64,000 nucleotides of DNA from a virus, in IMG/VR virus record IMGVR_UViG_3300022602_000058, positions 1-64,000 of that record; one strand, given 5' to 3'. Below the pieces are notes generated by a model. That model was not told the origin of the DNA and searched no databases. It worked only from the letters and a program-made list of their open reading frames with translations. The stretch's first letter is position 1, and every line of letters starts with the position of its first letter. Of the stretch, positions 18 to 11,479 are shown one piece after another. The translations under genes were made by a program, and so were the position numbers.

Positions 18-887
18 ATGAAAATTAAGCGGATACATACAATATTACGAAATAATGAGGATGTATATAACATTGAAGTAGCAGATAATAATAATTATTA
101 TGCAAACAATATACTTGTCAGCAACTGCCACCGTTTACGTAAAGGTAATAAGGTTAATGATATACTCAAAAAGATTAAAACGCCTTATAGATTTGGGTTT
201 ACAGGTACAATGCCTGAAGAGAATCTCGATCAATGGAATATTATAGGTAAGATAGGACCTGTCATTTACGAAAAAAATAGTTTCGATCTAAGACAAGAAA
301 ATTATGTAAGTAACGCTTCAATTCAAATATTAAAACTTATACATAAAGACAGACTGTCAGTACCGGAAGGTGGCAATGCTTATAGAGCAGAACTTGAGTA
401 CCTCACAACATGTAAATTTCGTAATGAGCTCATTACTAAGCTTGCCCAGGGATTAAAGCAAAATACTCTTATCATGGTAGACTTCATCCAACATGGTGAA
501 TTACTTTTTGATATGCTTCAAAAGACGCTACCAGATAAACAGTGTTTTTTTATACGAGGTGAGGTGGAAGTAGAAGAAAGAGATAAAGTACGACAGCTTA
601 TGGAAACTAATAGCAATGTTGTTGTTGTTGCTATCTCTAAGATTTTTTCTACAGGCATTAACATTAAGAATTTACATTACATAGTTTTTGCATGTGGCGG
701 TAAAGCTAAAATAAAAATTGTTCAATCAATAGGTCGCGGTCTTAGGTTGCATAAAGATAAGACTAAGCTTATAATATTCGACATAGCTGATGATCTCCGC
801 TATAGCGCCGCCCACGCTTTAAAACGGCAAGCACTTTATGAAAAAGAACACATCACCTTTGCAATCAAAGAAATCGAAGAAAAGTAA
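18..887 (+). CDS. uvsW: UvsW-like helicase, C-terminal half, with split-intein C-fragment at its N-terminus
   Basis: Residues from about 37 on match the second half of T4 UvsW, a superfamily 2 helicase acting on recombination intermediates and stalled forks: CHRLRKG (end of motif II), GFTGTMP (motif III), FSTGINIKNLH (motif V) and QSIGRGLR (motif VI). Walker A and the first half of motif II (DE) are absent. Residues 1-36 instead look like an intein C-terminus: YNIEVADNNNYYANN (block F) and ILVSN followed by Cys (block G). An in-frame TAA at 12-14 lies just before the ATG, so this is a separate ORF. The N-terminal half with IntN must lie upstream of the window. Protein trans-splicing would restore the DECH box. 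The 3' end overlaps the sigma gene by 50 bases. Confidence 0.88.
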   Translation: MKIKRIHTILRNNEDVYNIEVADNNNYYANNILVSNCHRLRKGNKVNDILKKIKTPYRFGFTGTMPEENLDQWNIIGKIGPVIYEKNSFDLRQENYVSNASIQILKLIHKDRLSVPEGGNAYRAELEYLTTCKFRNELITKLAQGLKQNTLIMVDFIQHGELLFDMLQKTLPDKQCFFIRGEVEVEERDKVRQLMETNSNVVVVAISKIFSTGINIKNLHYIVFACGGKAKIKIVQSIGRGLRLHKDKTKLIIFDIADDLRYSAAHALKRQALYEKEHITFAIKEIEEK

Positions 888-1452
888 GCTTAAGAAAGAG
901 CCTAAAATTCTAGATTTAAATCTTCCTATTGATGATACAGAAGATTTAGTTGAGATGATACCTGATGAAATACTACAGGCTATTCCTCTTGTTGAGGAGC
1001 AAGAAGCTCAACCGAAGAAAATTAAGCCTAAGGATAAGATTCATTATGTTAATAGTAGAGAATTTGAAGAGGAAATTAAAAACTACTATAAAACTGATAT
1101 TCTATCTGAGAAGGTATGTGATAGCTTAAACAAGATTGCTAATGGATTATCTTATGCACCTAACTTTATGAATTATTCGTATAAGGAAGAGATGGTAGGA
1201 GATGCAATTGTAAAGATGTTTTCAGCTTTAAAGAATAAAAAGTTTAAGATTGATTGTGGTTTCAGTCCATTCTCATATTTCACCACTATTGCCTTCCATG
1301 CATTTATTAATAGAATAAAAAAGGAAAAGAAACATCATGAAGCACTAAATGAGTATAGAGATAAAGTATATACTGAATTAATGCTTAACCCTGAAGAGAA
1401 TAATGGAGCTCATATCTACATTGAACCAACAGGTGACGATCCTGAAGAATAA
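838..1452 (+). CDS. 55: Late-transcription sigma factor, T4 gp55-like
   Basis: The central part (about residues 75-170) resembles T4 gp55, the small sigma factor that directs host RNA polymerase to late promoters consisting only of a -10-like TATAAATA box. The recognisable stretch covers YKEEMVGDAIVKMFSALKN, then FSPFSYFTTIAFHAF, then NRIKKEKK, matching gp55's sigma region 2-like block. The N-terminus (residues 1-60) is a lysine- and acid-rich extension not found in T4. The start overlaps uvsW by 50 bases and the next in-frame Met is about 40 codons later. It is the natural partner of the many TAAATA boxes found in front of structural genes in this window. Its co-activator gp33 was not identified. 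Confidence 0.85.
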   Translation: MKKNTSPLQSKKSKKSKLKKEPKILDLNLPIDDTEDLVEMIPDEILQAIPLVEEQEAQPKKIKPKDKIHYVNSREFEEEIKNYYKTDILSEKVCDSLNKIANGLSYAPNFMNYSYKEEMVGDAIVKMFSALKNKKFKIDCGFSPFSYFTTIAFHAFINRIKKEKKHHEALNEYRDKVYTELMLNPEENNGAHIYIEPTGDDPEE

Positions 1453-5588: not shown

Positions 5589-5993
5589 GTGTACAGGAAC
5601 GTTTCATACTCACCACAAGATCAAACCATTCATCTCCATACATGGGATGAGAATGGTAAGAGAGTAACCGTACAGTCAACGTACGAGCCTTATATCTATC
5701 TTGAGACAAATAATGCGCCAGACGCTCATAGTATCTTTAATACTAAGTTAAAGAAAAAGAAATTTAGGAATCAATACGATAGATCCAAATATATCAAGGA
5801 CAATAAGGTAACGCGAGTATTTGAAAACTTTAACGTATACCAACAATTTTTGATTGATGCATACTGGCAGGAGAATGAAAAACCTGAATTTACAAAGAAT
5901 CAATTAAAGGTATATTTTATTGATATCGAGACCGACTGTCATAATGTTAAGGATAGTAAAAAAATTAAAATTCGCAAAAAAACAATTTCTTGA
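5589..5993 (+). CDS. 43A: DNA polymerase gp43, N-terminal fragment
   Basis: This is the start of a family B DNA polymerase of the T4 gp43 type: N-terminal domain (YSPQDQTIHLHTWDENGK resembling the gp43 N-terminus), then the beginning of the 3'-5' exonuclease with its Exo I motif FIDIET near residue 114. After that motif the protein runs off into DCHNVKDSKKIKIRKK and stops, unlike any polymerase continuation I know. The rest of the polymerase is encoded at 6805-9165, beyond an HNH endonuclease gene. The start is GTG at 5589, chosen because the conserved N-terminus begins there and a promoter ends seven bases before. Whether the two fragments assemble or the RNA is spliced cannot be told from sequence. 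Confidence 0.85.
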   Translation: MYRNVSYSPQDQTIHLHTWDENGKRVTVQSTYEPYIYLETNNAPDAHSIFNTKLKKKKFRNQYDRSKYIKDNKVTRVFENFNVYQQFLIDAYWQENEKPEFTKNQLKVYFIDIETDCHNVKDSKKIKIRKKTIS

Positions 5994-6005
5994 TATAGAG
6001 ACGTA

Positions 6006-6011
6006 TAAATA
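6006..6011 (+). promoter_or_regulatory. Late promoter box of the HNH gene
   Basis: TAAATA within TATAAATA, exactly five bases before the ATG at 6017. This is the commonest geometry of late boxes in the window. Confidence 0.65.
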
Positions 6012-6016
6012 ATTTA

Positions 6017-6823
6017 ATGGATTATAAGTTAATATATCAAAGATTATGTCTCCGCGGGCAAACTAGAACCAAAAATAGTAATATATATCTCGAAAAACAT
6101 CACATTCTACCAAAATGCCTTGGTGGAGACAATTCATTTGCTAACCTAACACTTCTTACAGCCCGTGAACACTATATAGCTCATTACTTGCTGTGTAAGG
6201 TATATAACGATAGCAACATATCAGTTCGAGCTAAATTATCCTCTGCTTTTAACAGAATGTGTACGCTTAATACACATAAACGCCAATTTACATCGCGTCA
6301 ATATGATGTTGCGAGAAAGTATTTTTCTAAAAATCATCATATGAAGAGTAAGGAGTGTAGGGATAAGGTTGCCCTAGCTCTTAGGAAGAAAGGTATAATT
6401 ACAAGACAGCTTAGAGAGCAGCTGCTACCGCTGTGTAAGTGCGGTTGCGGTAAAAAGGTAAAAAATAAATACCACCAATATCTTTATAATCACTGGGACA
6501 GAAGTGTAACAAAATCAGGCTTTACAGAAGAAGTACGTAAACGGCTAAGCGAAAAAGCTATAAAGCGTATATTAAGCCTCACGGATAAGGAAAAGAAAGA
6601 CAGATTACAAAAATCCTTGCATAGTGAGAAAGTGGATCATATTATGAGAGGTAGAAAGATATCTCTCTCCAAAAGAGGGAAGAAAACCAACCAACAAAAT
6701 ATAATGGGTGAAAGATTTGCGAATATGACGGAGGATGAGTTTTTATTATACTTAAACACAGTATCACCAAAGGTATGGACAAGATATACAAAATTAAGAA
6801 ATAGATGTCTGAACAAGAAGTAA
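6017..6823 (+). CDS. Free-standing HNH homing endonuclease between polymerase halves
   Basis: The N-terminus has the phage HNH pattern EKHHILPKCLGG (residues 26-37), then NLTLLTAREHYIAHYLL, giving His-His, Asn and His ligands and catalytic residues. A cysteine cluster CKCGCGKKV near residue 140 looks like a small zinc-binding DNA-recognition element, followed by a lysine-rich helical tail (NUMOD-like). At 268 residues it is a full-length homing endonuclease with its own late promoter. Its last 19 bases overlap the start of the polymerase C-fragment in another frame, which would couple their translation. No group I intron core could be recognised around it, so I treat it as a free-standing mobile gene that has split gene 43. 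Confidence 0.85.
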   Translation: MDYKLIYQRLCLRGQTRTKNSNIYLEKHHILPKCLGGDNSFANLTLLTAREHYIAHYLLCKVYNDSNISVRAKLSSAFNRMCTLNTHKRQFTSRQYDVARKYFSKNHHMKSKECRDKVALALRKKGIITRQLREQLLPLCKCGCGKKVKNKYHQYLYNHWDRSVTKSGFTEEVRKRLSEKAIKRILSLTDKEKKDRLQKSLHSEKVDHIMRGRKISLSKRGKKTNQQNIMGERFANMTEDEFLLYLNTVSPKVWTRYTKLRNRCLNKK

Positions 6824-9165
6824 CATTAGGGCACTTCCGTAATAATAAATTATGGGAACAAGACTACGAGGTGTGGGATGAAAAAACCGGTACATGGATA
6901 GATTATTTTTCATCATCTTATTCTACAGACACATCGTTTCCGAACCCCCAGGATCCCGATCATCCCATTAATATCATAACTATCTATGACACCATAACAA
7001 AGAAGTTTTATTCATGGGGACTTAAACCTTATAAAGCAAAATCTGTTGATGTAACATATATTGCATGTAAGACAGAGGAAGAGCTATTGCATAAGTTTGT
7101 TACTTTCTTTAGTAAAGATTATTGCGATATCCTTTCGGGATGGAACTCAGAATTTTTTGATGTACCTTATGTTATTAATCGAGTAAGAAAAGTTTTAGGT
7201 GAAGAATCAATGCAAAAACTTTCACCAGCAGGTTCATTGCGTTCAAGAACCTTTATGGGTAAGTATGGTAGAGAACAAGTTAAATGGCATATTGAGGGAT
7301 TATCTTGTGTTGATTATCTTGATATCTATAAACGTTTCTGTCAAACTCTTCGTGAGTCTTATAAATTAGATGCGATTGGCGAAGTGGAATTACAAGAGCG
7401 TAAGATTGATTACGGTGATCAGAATTTGACTGAACTTGCTGATAATGACTGGGATACTTTTGTTGATTATAATATTCAGGACGTTAATCTTTTAGTAAGA
7501 CTAGAGCAAAAACTTCAGTATATTCAATTATTACGAATGATTGCTTATGCTGGTCTTACGACGTTTGAAGGAGCACTTGGATCACTTTCTGTTATTACCG
7601 GTCTTTGCTCTATTCGTGCACGTCTTAAGGATAAGCGTATTCCCACTTTTGTAAAGGATGTACAAGAGGGTACAAAGAATGCTGGTGCGTATGTAGCAGA
7701 TCCACAGCAAGGTTTTCAAGAGCATATAGTATCGTTGGACGCTAATAGTCTATACCCCAACACGATGATTACACTTAATCTCTCACCAGAGACAAAAGTA
7801 GGTAAGATCATTGGAAAGAATGATAAAGAAATTACTATTAAACACGTAAATGGTCAAACGTTCAATCTTACACATGAAAAGTTTGCTGCGTTTGTTAAAC
7901 AGGAGGAGATAGCAATTTCACGTGCTAAAATTCTTTTTACACAAAAGGAGAAAGGTATTATACCTGATACAATTGACTATTATTACAATAAGCGTGTAGA
8001 GGTTAAGAAGCAACTTACTAAAGCAAAGAAAAAATCGCTTACTCTTACTGAAAACACAAAAGAGTATGATAATAATCAGATCGAAATTGACCGACTAAAC
8101 ATTCGTCAGCATACTATTAAGATTTTGATGAATACAGTGTATGGATATTTTGGCAATAAACATAGTCCGTTAGGTGACGATGAACTTGCCGAATCTATTA
8201 CACTTACCGGGCAAGCTGTTATTAAAGAATCAAATCGTATTTTGACTGAATATATCAAGACAAATACCGGTCTGACCGATGAAGATCTAAAAGATAATTC
8301 ACCTATTATCTATAACGATACAGATTCAAGTTATATTTCAATTAAACATCTTGTTAAAGCGAAAAAGATCCCTGTATTTGATAAGGACGGTAATGTACAT
8401 CCTGATTATTACAAAGCTGTTGCTGATATTGAAGATCATTTGAATAATGAAATTATTAAATGGGGCAAAAGCGCGTTAGGATCAAAGGATTGTCGACTTG
8501 TGTTCAAGCGTGAAGCTATTGCTGATGTCGGGCTGTTTCTAGCAAAGAAACGTTACGTCCTGCATACACTTGACGTCGAAGGCATTCCTGGTAAGAAATT
8601 TAAGTATACAGGCGTTGAAGTTGTACGTACAACCATGCCTACACCTATTAAACCTTACGTTAAAAAAATTATTGAAACAATGCTTTTGACGAAAGACTAT
8701 AACGCCACTAATAAAGTGTTTAATGAAACATACGAAATCTTTAAGAAATTACCACTTGAAGATATTGCATTTGTAATGGGTGTGAAGGGATATGAAAAGT
8801 ATGCCAATCGTAGTAATGGATTTGAGACAGTAAAGGGAATGCCCAAACACGTTAAAGCTGCATACTATCATAATATTCTTCTTGATCGATTCGGTATTGA
8901 ACGAAAATATGAAAAGATGACATCAGGTGATAAGGTAAGATTCTTTGAAGTAAAGAAACCTAATAGCTTTGGACTATCTGTTATTGGATACAAATACTAT
9001 TACCCTAAGGAGTTTCAATCTATTTTTGAAATTGATTATGAAACAATGTTTGAAAAGATTATCTATTCTGTTATTGAACGTTTTTACGAAGCTGTAAATT
9101 GGACAGTAAAAAGACCAGGTAATGATGCGCAGATTGATCTTTTTGATTTACTTGGAATGGAATAG
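6805..9165 (+). CDS. 43B: DNA polymerase gp43, C-terminal fragment (exonuclease remainder and polymerase)
   Basis: From residue about 45 (FPNPQDPDHPINIITIYDT) this is T4 gp43-like. Exo II is GWNSEFFDVPYVINR, Exo III is DYNIQDV. Polymerase motif A is SLDANSLYPNT, motif B KILMNTVYGYFGN, motif C IYNDTDSSYI. The C-terminus QIDLFDLLG resembles the sliding-clamp binding tail of gp43. The Exo I aspartate and glutamate (DIET) are on the separate N-fragment. Proofreading would therefore need the two pieces to associate. The first 44 residues (starting MSEQEVTLGHFRNNK) are not recognisable and may come from the insertion event. The ATG at 6805 overlaps the end of the HNH gene. Confidence 0.9.
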   Translation: MSEQEVTLGHFRNNKLWEQDYEVWDEKTGTWIDYFSSSYSTDTSFPNPQDPDHPINIITIYDTITKKFYSWGLKPYKAKSVDVTYIACKTEEELLHKFVTFFSKDYCDILSGWNSEFFDVPYVINRVRKVLGEESMQKLSPAGSLRSRTFMGKYGREQVKWHIEGLSCVDYLDIYKRFCQTLRESYKLDAIGEVELQERKIDYGDQNLTELADNDWDTFVDYNIQDVNLLVRLEQKLQYIQLLRMIAYAGLTTFEGALGSLSVITGLCSIRARLKDKRIPTFVKDVQEGTKNAGAYVADPQQGFQEHIVSLDANSLYPNTMITLNLSPETKVGKIIGKNDKEITIKHVNGQTFNLTHEKFAAFVKQEEIAISRAKILFTQKEKGIIPDTIDYYYNKRVEVKKQLTKAKKKSLTLTENTKEYDNNQIEIDRLNIRQHTIKILMNTVYGYFGNKHSPLGDDELAESITLTGQAVIKESNRILTEYIKTNTGLTDEDLKDNSPIIYNDTDSSYISIKHLVKAKKIPVFDKDGNVHPDYYKAVADIEDHLNNEIIKWGKSALGSKDCRLVFKREAIADVGLFLAKKRYVLHTLDVEGIPGKKFKYTGVEVVRTTMPTPIKPYVKKIIETMLLTKDYNATNKVFNETYEIFKKLPLEDIAFVMGVKGYEKYANRSNGFETVKGMPKHVKAAYYHNILLDRFGIERKYEKMTSGDKVRFFEVKKPNSFGLSVIGYKYYYPKEFQSIFEIDYETMFEKIIYSVIERFYEAVNWTVKRPGNDAQIDLFDLLGME

Positions 9166-10789: not shown

Positions 10790-10851
10790 TGAGTAAAGTT
10801 GTTGTACCAGTTTCCGGTGGGATAGGTAATAGTATTGACAATACTAATTAA
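10789..10851 (+). pseudogene. Truncated start of a PP-loop ATPase (QueC-like) gene
   Basis: A 20-codon ORF coupled to uvsX by TAATG. It begins MSKVVVPVSGGIG, the typical N-terminus of an ATP-pyrophosphatase of the QueC/asparagine-synthase type (SGGxDS), then diverges and stops after SIDNTN. The GIY-YIG endonuclease gene ends on the opposite strand at 10844, inside this ORF. An intact queC with the same motif starts at 11547. The simplest reading is that a homing endonuclease landed in the PP-loop of an ancestral gene and only its first codons remain. It is too short to be functional. Confidence 0.55.
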
Positions 10852-11479
10852 CCATCTCAAACCCTTTTTCTCTACCTTGCTTGAGCTTTCCTTTACGTTT
10901 TAAGAACCCTACATCAAAGCCAAATAAATTAAAGAATTCTCTGTTATTCTTAATATTTACAATTTTTCCACATGGCAACTTAACACAAAACGGTCGACTC
11001 TTTATATCACTTAGCTTTGATTTAACATCTGCACGGAAAGAAGGGTTGTCCTTTTTTAATCTTTGACTCTTTGCTTCGCTCACACCTGGCAGGTTGTTGA
11101 GATTATTGATCTTCATCTTTTCTGACATTAATCTTCTTCTCTCCTTCGACCATATTTTTTTCTTTTGCTCGTCAGTGTATTTGAATCGTAACCCGGTTGT
11201 GTCAAAATCTTCTGTTTGAATATGCATATTATACCAATCATTTGATAGCTTAACATTCCATAGCTTTTGATAATAAATTTCTCTTTTATTAAGATCAGCT
11301 GCATTTAGGCAATATTCGATAATATCTTTTTTAAAATTGTCTATCCCTAAAATCTTTATATCATTTTTTAGCCATTTCGAGCTACCGAAATAGTTTTCAT
11401 GCCCTTTATCAACCTTCTTTTTACCTATATAACGCTTGCCTGTTACGATATTCGTTGTAATGTAGATATAACCAAACAT
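10844..11479 (-). CDS. GIY-YIG homing endonuclease
   Basis: GIY-YIG nuclease domain at the N-terminus: GYIYITTNIVTGKRYIGKK carries both the YIY and YIG tripeptides, followed by KDIIEYC and a catalytic-Glu candidate in LNKREIYYQ. The middle is a basic helical DNA-binding region, and PFCVKLPCGKIVNIKNNREF at the end looks like a NUMOD-type recognition module. The 211-residue length is normal for Seg-like free-standing enzymes. It sits on the strand opposite its neighbours between uvsX and queC, with its own late promoter. Confidence 0.85.
   Translation of the reverse strand: MFGYIYITTNIVTGKRYIGKKKVDKGHENYFGSSKWLKNDIKILGIDNFKKDIIEYCLNAADLNKREIYYQKLWNVKLSNDWYNMHIQTEDFDTTGLRFKYTDEQKKKIWSKERRRLMSEKMKINNLNNLPGVSEAKSQRLKKDNPSFRADVKSKLSDIKSRPFCVKLPCGKIVNIKNNREFFNLFGFDVGFLKRKGKLKQGREKGFEMVN

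What the first reader, a model, noticed from the sequence alone, without database searches (positions are those of the whole stretch)
5589..9165. DNA polymerase gene broken inside the exonuclease domain by an HNH gene
Seen: the Exo I motif (DIET) is on a 134-residue ORF; Exo II, Exo III and polymerase motifs A-C are on a 786-residue ORF; an HNH gene lies between and overlaps the second ORF's start. Known: split gene 43 with endonuclease inserts occurs in some Aeromonas T4-like phages. Here the break lies between catalytic Exo motifs, so proofreading depends on fragment association or RNA splicing.
Basis: partly seen in the sequence, partly recalled or inferred. Interest (0 to 1): 0.75.

Follow-up and report, generated by a model that had tools for sequence, protein, structure and literature searches.

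The report
Phage DNA polymerase split by homing-endonuclease cassette
In this phage and about twenty others, a selfish DNA-cutting gene has split the phage's replication enzyme in two inside its proofreading site, and it carries matching short tags for both halves that probably hold the pieces together so that the enzyme still works.

Summary
A T4/RB69-type family-B DNA polymerase is encoded in two frames: 134 aa with Exo I (DIET), and 786 aa with Exo II, Exo III and motifs A-C. A Mob-type HNH homing-endonuclease gene lies between. Relatives about 90% identical are unsplit (DIETYSPDAFP), so the insertion is really about 980 nt. It adds a basic tail to chain 1 (SKKIKIRKK), an Exo I-like sequence, a TATAAATA late-promoter motif inside a hairpin, the HNH gene, and an acidic leader on chain 2 (VTLGH..DYEVWDE..W).

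About twenty phages, many distant, carry the same cassette at the same codon. In others the HNH gene is decayed, lost with the gene still split, or lost with the halves re-fused around a tail-leader loop. The leader is under purifying selection. Rfam finds no intron here, but finds group I introns at another break of the same gene.

Best reading: a two-chain polymerase made by a homing cassette that brings its own docking tags and probably represses itself through an Exo I-mimic site. It is a new variant of the Aeh1 NrdA/MobE arrangement. Docking, enzyme activity and autorepression are inferred; a link of the tags to VidaL-type split inteins is only suggestive.

The parts
5589..5993 (+). ORF1: polymerase N-terminal chain (134 aa) with Exo I
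   Evidence: phrog_262 E 1.2e-15
5922..5933 (+). Exo I codons DIET; left edge of the insertion follows directly
5934..5990 (+). Tail: 19 added residues DCHNVKDSKKIKIRKKTIS, conserved KIKIRKK core
   Evidence: absent from unsplit alleles; conserved in about 20 loci
5934..6915 (+). Approximate mobile cassette (tail, regulatory DNA, HNH gene, leader)
   Evidence: comparison with unsplit L004-L009, L011; 96-100% identical block from about 5930 to 6973 between lineages otherwise about 80% identical
5986..6002 (+). Copy of Exo I DNA (TTTCTTGATATAGAGAC, 15/17 nt to 5916-5932); proposed operator
   Evidence: D2; (window P 0.001; 18 loci combined 1.6e-19)
6004..6011 (+). TATAAATA, T4-type late promoter motif
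   Evidence: 13 of 18 loci against 0.8 expected
5988..6043 (+). Predicted hairpin enclosing the HNH start codon
   Evidence: z -2.4 (L085 z -7.4, L092 z -4.6)
6017..6823 (+). HNH homing endonuclease gene (268 aa, Mob-like)
   Evidence: phrog_655 E 3.9e-37; Pfam HNH_4 below its cut-off
6805..6915 (+). Leader: 37 added residues at the start of chain 2
   Evidence: absent from unsplit alleles; alignment A2; dN/dS
6805..9165 (+). ORF3: polymerase main chain (786 aa) with Exo II, Exo III, motifs A-C
838..1452 (+). gp55-like late sigma factor, which makes T4-type late promoters plausible
   Evidence: phrog_234 E 1.4e-22

Best explanation
This is a DNA polymerase in two chains, made by a mobile free-standing HNH homing-endonuclease cassette that sits at the Exo I codons. 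Shown by sequence: the break, its place, the unsplit alleles, horizontal transfer of the whole cassette, recurrence at the same codon, later loss stages, and selection on the leader as protein. Inferred: (1) the HNH protein recognises the nearly invariant Exo I DNA of cassette-free polymerase genes, cuts near it, and is copied in by repair; (2) ORF1 and ORF3 are translated separately and meet through the basic tail and acidic leader, rebuilding the exonuclease site from both chains; (3) HNH expression is limited by a hairpin on read-through transcripts, a late promoter, and HNH binding to the Exo I-like copy at that promoter, as for I-TevI.
For: Unsplit alleles about 90% identical. Cassette 96-100% identical between lineages whose flanks are about 80% identical. 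HNH-only scan: every full-length distant HNH relative lies in, or directly before, a PolB gene broken at this codon, with the same tail and leader motifs. Split state scattered on the tree, at least 12 changes forced. L267 and L282 split without HNH, L274 HNH decayed, L278/X1/Marzo/L243 fused. Leader dS much above dN, also in HNH-free L267. Tail mean charge +4.3, leader -5.6. Exo I copy, TATAAATA and hairpin, late sigma factor. Precedents: gp43A/43B of phage 25 co-purify and polymerise, Aeh1 split NrdA active, I-TevI operator resembles its homing site and overlaps a late promoter (PMC2988022).
Against: No protein, RNA or activity data. ORF3 has no clear ribosome-binding site, so how it is translated early is unexplained. 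In the window group TATAAATA lies 13-14 nt before the HNH ATG, so a late transcript would be nearly leaderless. The Exo I copy is individually not above shuffles in four of 18 loci. The loop of the L278 model has low to moderate confidence. The leader scan could only find loci that have the leader.
Confidence: 0.77

Rival explanations
1. The insert is a self-splicing intron carrying an HNH ORF, and the mRNA of the polymerase is continuous.
For: The insertion lies at a conserved codon, and joining DIET to YSTDTSFP would give a normal protein. Introns with HNH genes occur in phage genes, and group I introns lie elsewhere in relatives' polymerase genes.
Against: No Rfam match at the site, while the same search finds introns in the palm break of L028, L270 and L274. 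Only about 80-90 nt lie outside the HNH ORF on each side. The leader is under protein-level selection. L278, X1, Marzo and L243 keep the leader inside one continuous protein.
Confidence: 0.05
2. It is a split intein: the two chains are joined by protein splicing and tail and leader are removed.
For: Tail plus leader resemble the start of the VidaL split intein, and VidaL genes have the same layout.
Against: No conserved Cys/Ser at the start of the tail, no terminal Asn, and the 56-residue module lacks room for the later intein blocks. No Pfam or NCBIfam intein match. Fused alleles keep the module in the protein.
Confidence: 0.04
3. The polymerase is two-chain, but tail and leader are only by-products of the cassette (new stop, new start codon) and the halves associate through the polymerase fold itself.
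For: gp43A/43B of phage 25 associate and are active (PMC2988022); I found no report of tags there. Chain 2 needs a new start codon in any case.
Against: Specific conserved residues in both tags across divergent phages, opposite charges, and conservation in HNH-free and fused alleles.
Confidence: 0.25
4. The gene is broken and dead; the phage uses another polymerase.
For: Break between catalytic exonuclease motifs; the record (90 kb) may be incomplete.
Against: All motifs intact, one PolB in the record, the same state in about twenty loci, purifying selection on the leader.
Confidence: 0.03

Closest known systems
Aeromonas phage Aeh1 nrdA-a / mobE / nrdA-b
   Same: Free-standing Mob-type HNH gene splits an essential gene into two ORFs; hairpin and late promoter control the HNH gene (PMC2988022). 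The title of Crona 2011 reports protein interaction domains derived from the mobile element (cited in PMC3267527; paper itself not held).
   Different: Target is DNA polymerase Exo I instead of NrdA. Here about twenty loci, HNH-free split alleles and re-fused alleles are seen. Tag homology to the Aeh1 tails was not tested.
Split gene 43 of Aeromonas phages 25 and 44RR (gp43A/gp43B)
   Same: Split PolB of a T4-like phage whose two chains co-purify and are active (PMC2988022).
   Different: Associated there with a Seg (GIY-YIG) gene or an untranslated spacer; whether the break is at the same place was not tested. Here an HNH gene with tail and leader sits at Exo I.
I-TevI, autorepressing homing endonuclease of T4
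   Same: Homing-site-like sequence overlapping a late promoter upstream of the endonuclease ORF, and a hairpin over its start (PMC2988022).
   Different: I-TevI is GIY-YIG and intron-encoded; here HNH and free-standing. Binding is not shown.
VidaL split intein in phage uvsX genes
   Same: Layout of short tail, endonuclease (or none), leader; sequence similarity of the L275 and L283 modules to the first 50 residues.
   Different: Module here is truncated and lacks the splicing residues; the endonuclease is of another kind.

Membership tests
Genes-in-pieces made by a free-standing homing endonuclease | Coding region continuous in relatives, two ORFs here | tested here: met
Genes-in-pieces made by a free-standing homing endonuclease | Endonuclease gene between the halves, not in an intron or intein | tested here: met
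Genes-in-pieces made by a free-standing homing endonuclease | The two chains assemble into an active enzyme | not testable with these tools
   Only indirect: selection and HNH-free split alleles
Mob-type HNH homing endonuclease (phrog_655) | Family profile match | tested here: met
   E 3.9e-37; tblastn hits to annotated MobA/MobD/MobE
Mob-type HNH homing endonuclease (phrog_655) | Cuts cassette-free alleles and is copied into them | not testable with these tools
   Transfer between lineages seen; cutting not shown
T4/RB69 gp43-type PolB | Exo I-III and motifs A-C, gp43 fold | tested here: met
   fused relative L278 matches RB69 gp43 at E 5e-35
Group I intron | Catalytic core in the insert | tested here: not met
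   positive control
Split intein | N-terminal Cys/Ser, C-terminal Asn, splicing blocks | tested here: not met
Split intein | Sequence homology of the module to VidaL-type inteins | tested here: inconclusive
   PDB-wide E 0.26, hhalign 49%, pairwise E 4e-6 for L275, most other rows not above shuffles
I-TevI-like autorepression | Homing-site-like sequence overlapping a late promoter before the endonuclease ORF | tested here: met
   the homing site itself is inferred, not known
I-TevI-like autorepression | Endonuclease binds there without cutting | not testable with these tools
   needs purified protein

The most novel reading that the evidence does not exclude
The tail and leader are a splicing-dead remnant of a VidaL-type split intein that now only docks the two halves. 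A homing endonuclease thus travels with a two-part protein clasp that lets it break an essential catalytic motif, and after the nuclease is lost the halves can re-fuse and keep the clasp as a loop.
Probability: 0.33. Interest if true: 0.85.

Novelty: new variant of a known kind. Interest (0 to 1): 0.72.

Why it matters
Gene splitting by free-standing homing endonucleases was known from a few single cases; a 2023 survey cites one split reductase (PMC10448857). Here one cassette type has done it repeatedly to the replicative polymerase, between residues of one exonuclease site, and the intermediate stages survive in nature. This makes it directly testable how an essential enzyme survives being cut, whether the mobile element itself supplies the remedy, and whether proofreading depends on a separate small chain.

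Tried and rejected
Intron: no Rfam match in or near the site, while palm introns in relatives were found. Leader as a native polymerase loop: suggested by Xanthomonas phage X1, rejected because close unsplit relatives of both the window (L004-L009) and L084 (L161-L165) lack it. Tail and leader as a known domain: no convincing Pfam, NCBIfam or PHROGs family; Kelch hits match only the YEVWDExxxxW hairpin. Isolated phages with the leader: only the fused X1/Stenotrophomonas group found. Alignments A4, A6 and A7 misplaced the leader and were not used; A5, used for the model, still misplaces the first 18 or so leader residues. phiAS5 mobE is not between gene halves, so it gave no tails to compare. 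No paper on a split at Exo I was found. Crona 2011, Friedrich 2007 and the mobE hairpin paper are not held.

Full report
OBSERVATION. The polymerase is a T4 gp43-type PolB and the only PolB match in the 90 kb record. The HNH protein belongs to phrog_655 and resembles annotated MobA of T4 and MobE of phiAS5.

WHAT WAS INSERTED. A scan of IMG/VR gave uninterrupted polymerases about 90% identical (L004-L009, L011) in which ORF1 residue 115 is followed directly by the equivalent of ORF3 residue 38. They read DIETYSPDAFPNPQDP; the window reads DIET-[tail, HNH, leader]-YSTDTSFPNPQDP. The insertion is thus about 980 nt: it adds 19 residues to chain 1 and 37 to chain 2. Three further contigs (L002, L003, L010) carry the same insert. 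DNA identity between them and the window is about 70-90% in the flanking polymerase, rises to 96-100% from about 5930 to 6973, and falls back. Tail, HNH gene and leader therefore moved between phage lineages as one block.

RECURRENCE. A profile scan with the HNH protein alone found divergent full-length relatives (L084-L095, 30-53% identity). All lie in, or directly before, a PolB gene broken at this site; the upstream chain is off the contig in L087. Every readable ORF1 ends in a version of KIKIRKK, and every ORF3 starts with a version of M-EE-ITLGDxRNN-DYEVWDEExxxWVxxxxSCYxxxGGFP. Shorter HNH matches (L096-L160) were not examined. Cassette-free relatives of L084 (L161, L163-L165, 73-83% identity) have no such residues. 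On a tree of 76 polymerases the occupied state needs at least 12 changes on well-supported branches; the window sits among unsplit alleles, L002 beside unsplit L007, L091 beside unsplit L165. Long branches make deep nodes unsure.

LIFE CYCLE. A scan with the leader found later stages. In L274 the HNH gene is frameshifted. In L267 the HNH gene is gone except for its last codons, and the polymerase is still two ORFs. L282 is also split without HNH. In L278 tail and leader are joined in frame (KVRKKTELMMSLAEVRQNEDDYEVWDESKKEW), and Xanthomonas phage X1, Stenotrophomonas phages (Marzo and others) and L243 also have a continuous loop there. Fused loops align with split ones on both sides of the break. 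The direction of change in each case is an inference.

CODING SELECTION. Leader comparisons give dS well above dN: L267-L268 1.6 against 0.022, L085-L267 1.15 against 0.08, L087-L092 1.9 against 0.18. L267 has no HNH gene, so the leader is kept as polymerase protein, not as part of the endonuclease gene or of an intron. The tails are too short for firm values.

NOT AN INTRON. Rfam finds nothing credible at this site even at E 10. The same library finds group I introns at a different break, before motif B, in L028, L270 and L274, so the search works on this gene family.

REGULATION. Just before the HNH start, all 18 loci tested have a stretch resembling their own Exo I DNA, in another frame or position (window: 15 of 17 nt to 5916-5932). 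Best-match scores against dinucleotide shuffles give a combined P of 1.6e-19, which overstates because loci are related; four loci are individually above 0.05. The fourth codon tends to follow the phage's own polymerase (valine with valine) but not always (L283). TATAAATA, the T4 late promoter motif, is there in 13 of 18 loci against 0.8 expected. The phage encodes a gp55-like late sigma factor (phrog_234, 1.4e-22). Hairpins around the HNH start fold better than shuffles in five of six loci. This is the arrangement described for I-TevI, and hairpin plus late promoter for Aeh1 mobE (PMC2988022). I infer that the HNH enzyme recognises Exo I DNA, an almost invariant target, and represses itself through the copy. 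The cleavage site is not known.

DOCKING. In 20 loci the tail has a mean charge of +4.3 and the leader -5.6, with invariant or nearly invariant R in the tail and Y, E, V, D, E, W in the leader. A model of fused L278 has the RB69 gp43 fold (Foldseek E 5e-35). Its loop is predicted as strand (130-132), helix (140-145) and two strands (150-154, 159-162) at low to moderate confidence. I propose that the tail strand of chain 1 adds to the leader of chain 2 beside the exonuclease site.

POSSIBLE ORIGIN. The best PDB match of the module without its hairpin is VidaL, a split intein (E 0.26 in the whole PDB). The VidaL letters used as a query were recalled from memory and then matched the PDB chain. 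The L275 module matches it at E 4e-6 in a pairwise test and scores 65 against 25 +/- 4 for shuffles; L283 likewise; most others, the window's included, are not above shuffles one by one. hhalign gives 49% probability. VidaL in uvsX genes has the same layout: ORF1 ending VVQIRLTKKG*, an endonuclease or nothing, then MIEEKKVTVQEL. The module here lacks the splicing residues, so if it came from such an intein it can no longer splice. I hold this as about one in three.

STEPS SHOWN AND INFERRED. Shown: split, mobility, recurrence, loss stages, coding selection on the leader. Inferred from precedent: the two-chain enzyme is active (gp43A/B of phage 25 and Aeh1 NrdA; PMC2988022). Inferred here: tag-mediated docking, Exo I as target, autorepression. 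Because Exo I is on the small chain and Exo II and III on the large one, proofreading needs both chains, while all polymerase motifs are on the large chain.

JUDGEMENT. A gene split by a free-standing homing endonuclease is a known kind. The target, the conserved two-part tag that travels with the endonuclease, the natural series from empty to re-fused, and the Exo I-mimic site at a late promoter make it a new variant.

Noticed in passing
window 18-887 +: A UvsW-like helicase fragment starts with what looks like the C-terminal part of an intein (VYNIEVADNNNYYANNILVSN before CHRL; Pfam Intein_splicing E 0.012, below its cut-off); the N-terminal part would lie before the record's start.
   Followed up: partly
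window 10844-11479 -: A GIY-YIG endonuclease (SegE-like, Pfam PF19835 E 2.7e-8) on the opposite strand between a uvsX-like gene and the next plus-strand ORF.
   Followed up: no
L028 6134-7396, L270 4248-4925, L274 3467-3944: Group I introns interrupt the same polymerase gene before motif B; L270 and L274 also have the Exo I split, so their polymerase gene is in three or more pieces.
   Followed up: partly
L028 7396-9925, L274 3944-5418: Inteins split over separate ORFs at the DTDS motif of the polymerase; in L028 an endonuclease ORF (7966-8970) lies between the halves.
   Followed up: no
L287-L290: VidaL-type split inteins in phage uvsX with an endonuclease ORF intact (L287), broken (L288) or absent (L289): a loss series like that of the split polymerase.
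   Followed up: partly
window 6780-6830: ORF3 has no obvious Shine-Dalgarno sequence before its ATG, nor has HNH-free L267; how chain 2 is translated is unexplained.
   Followed up: no
L093 5819-6403, L282 4245-4922: Further endonuclease-like ORFs lie at other breaks of these polymerase genes.
   Followed up: no
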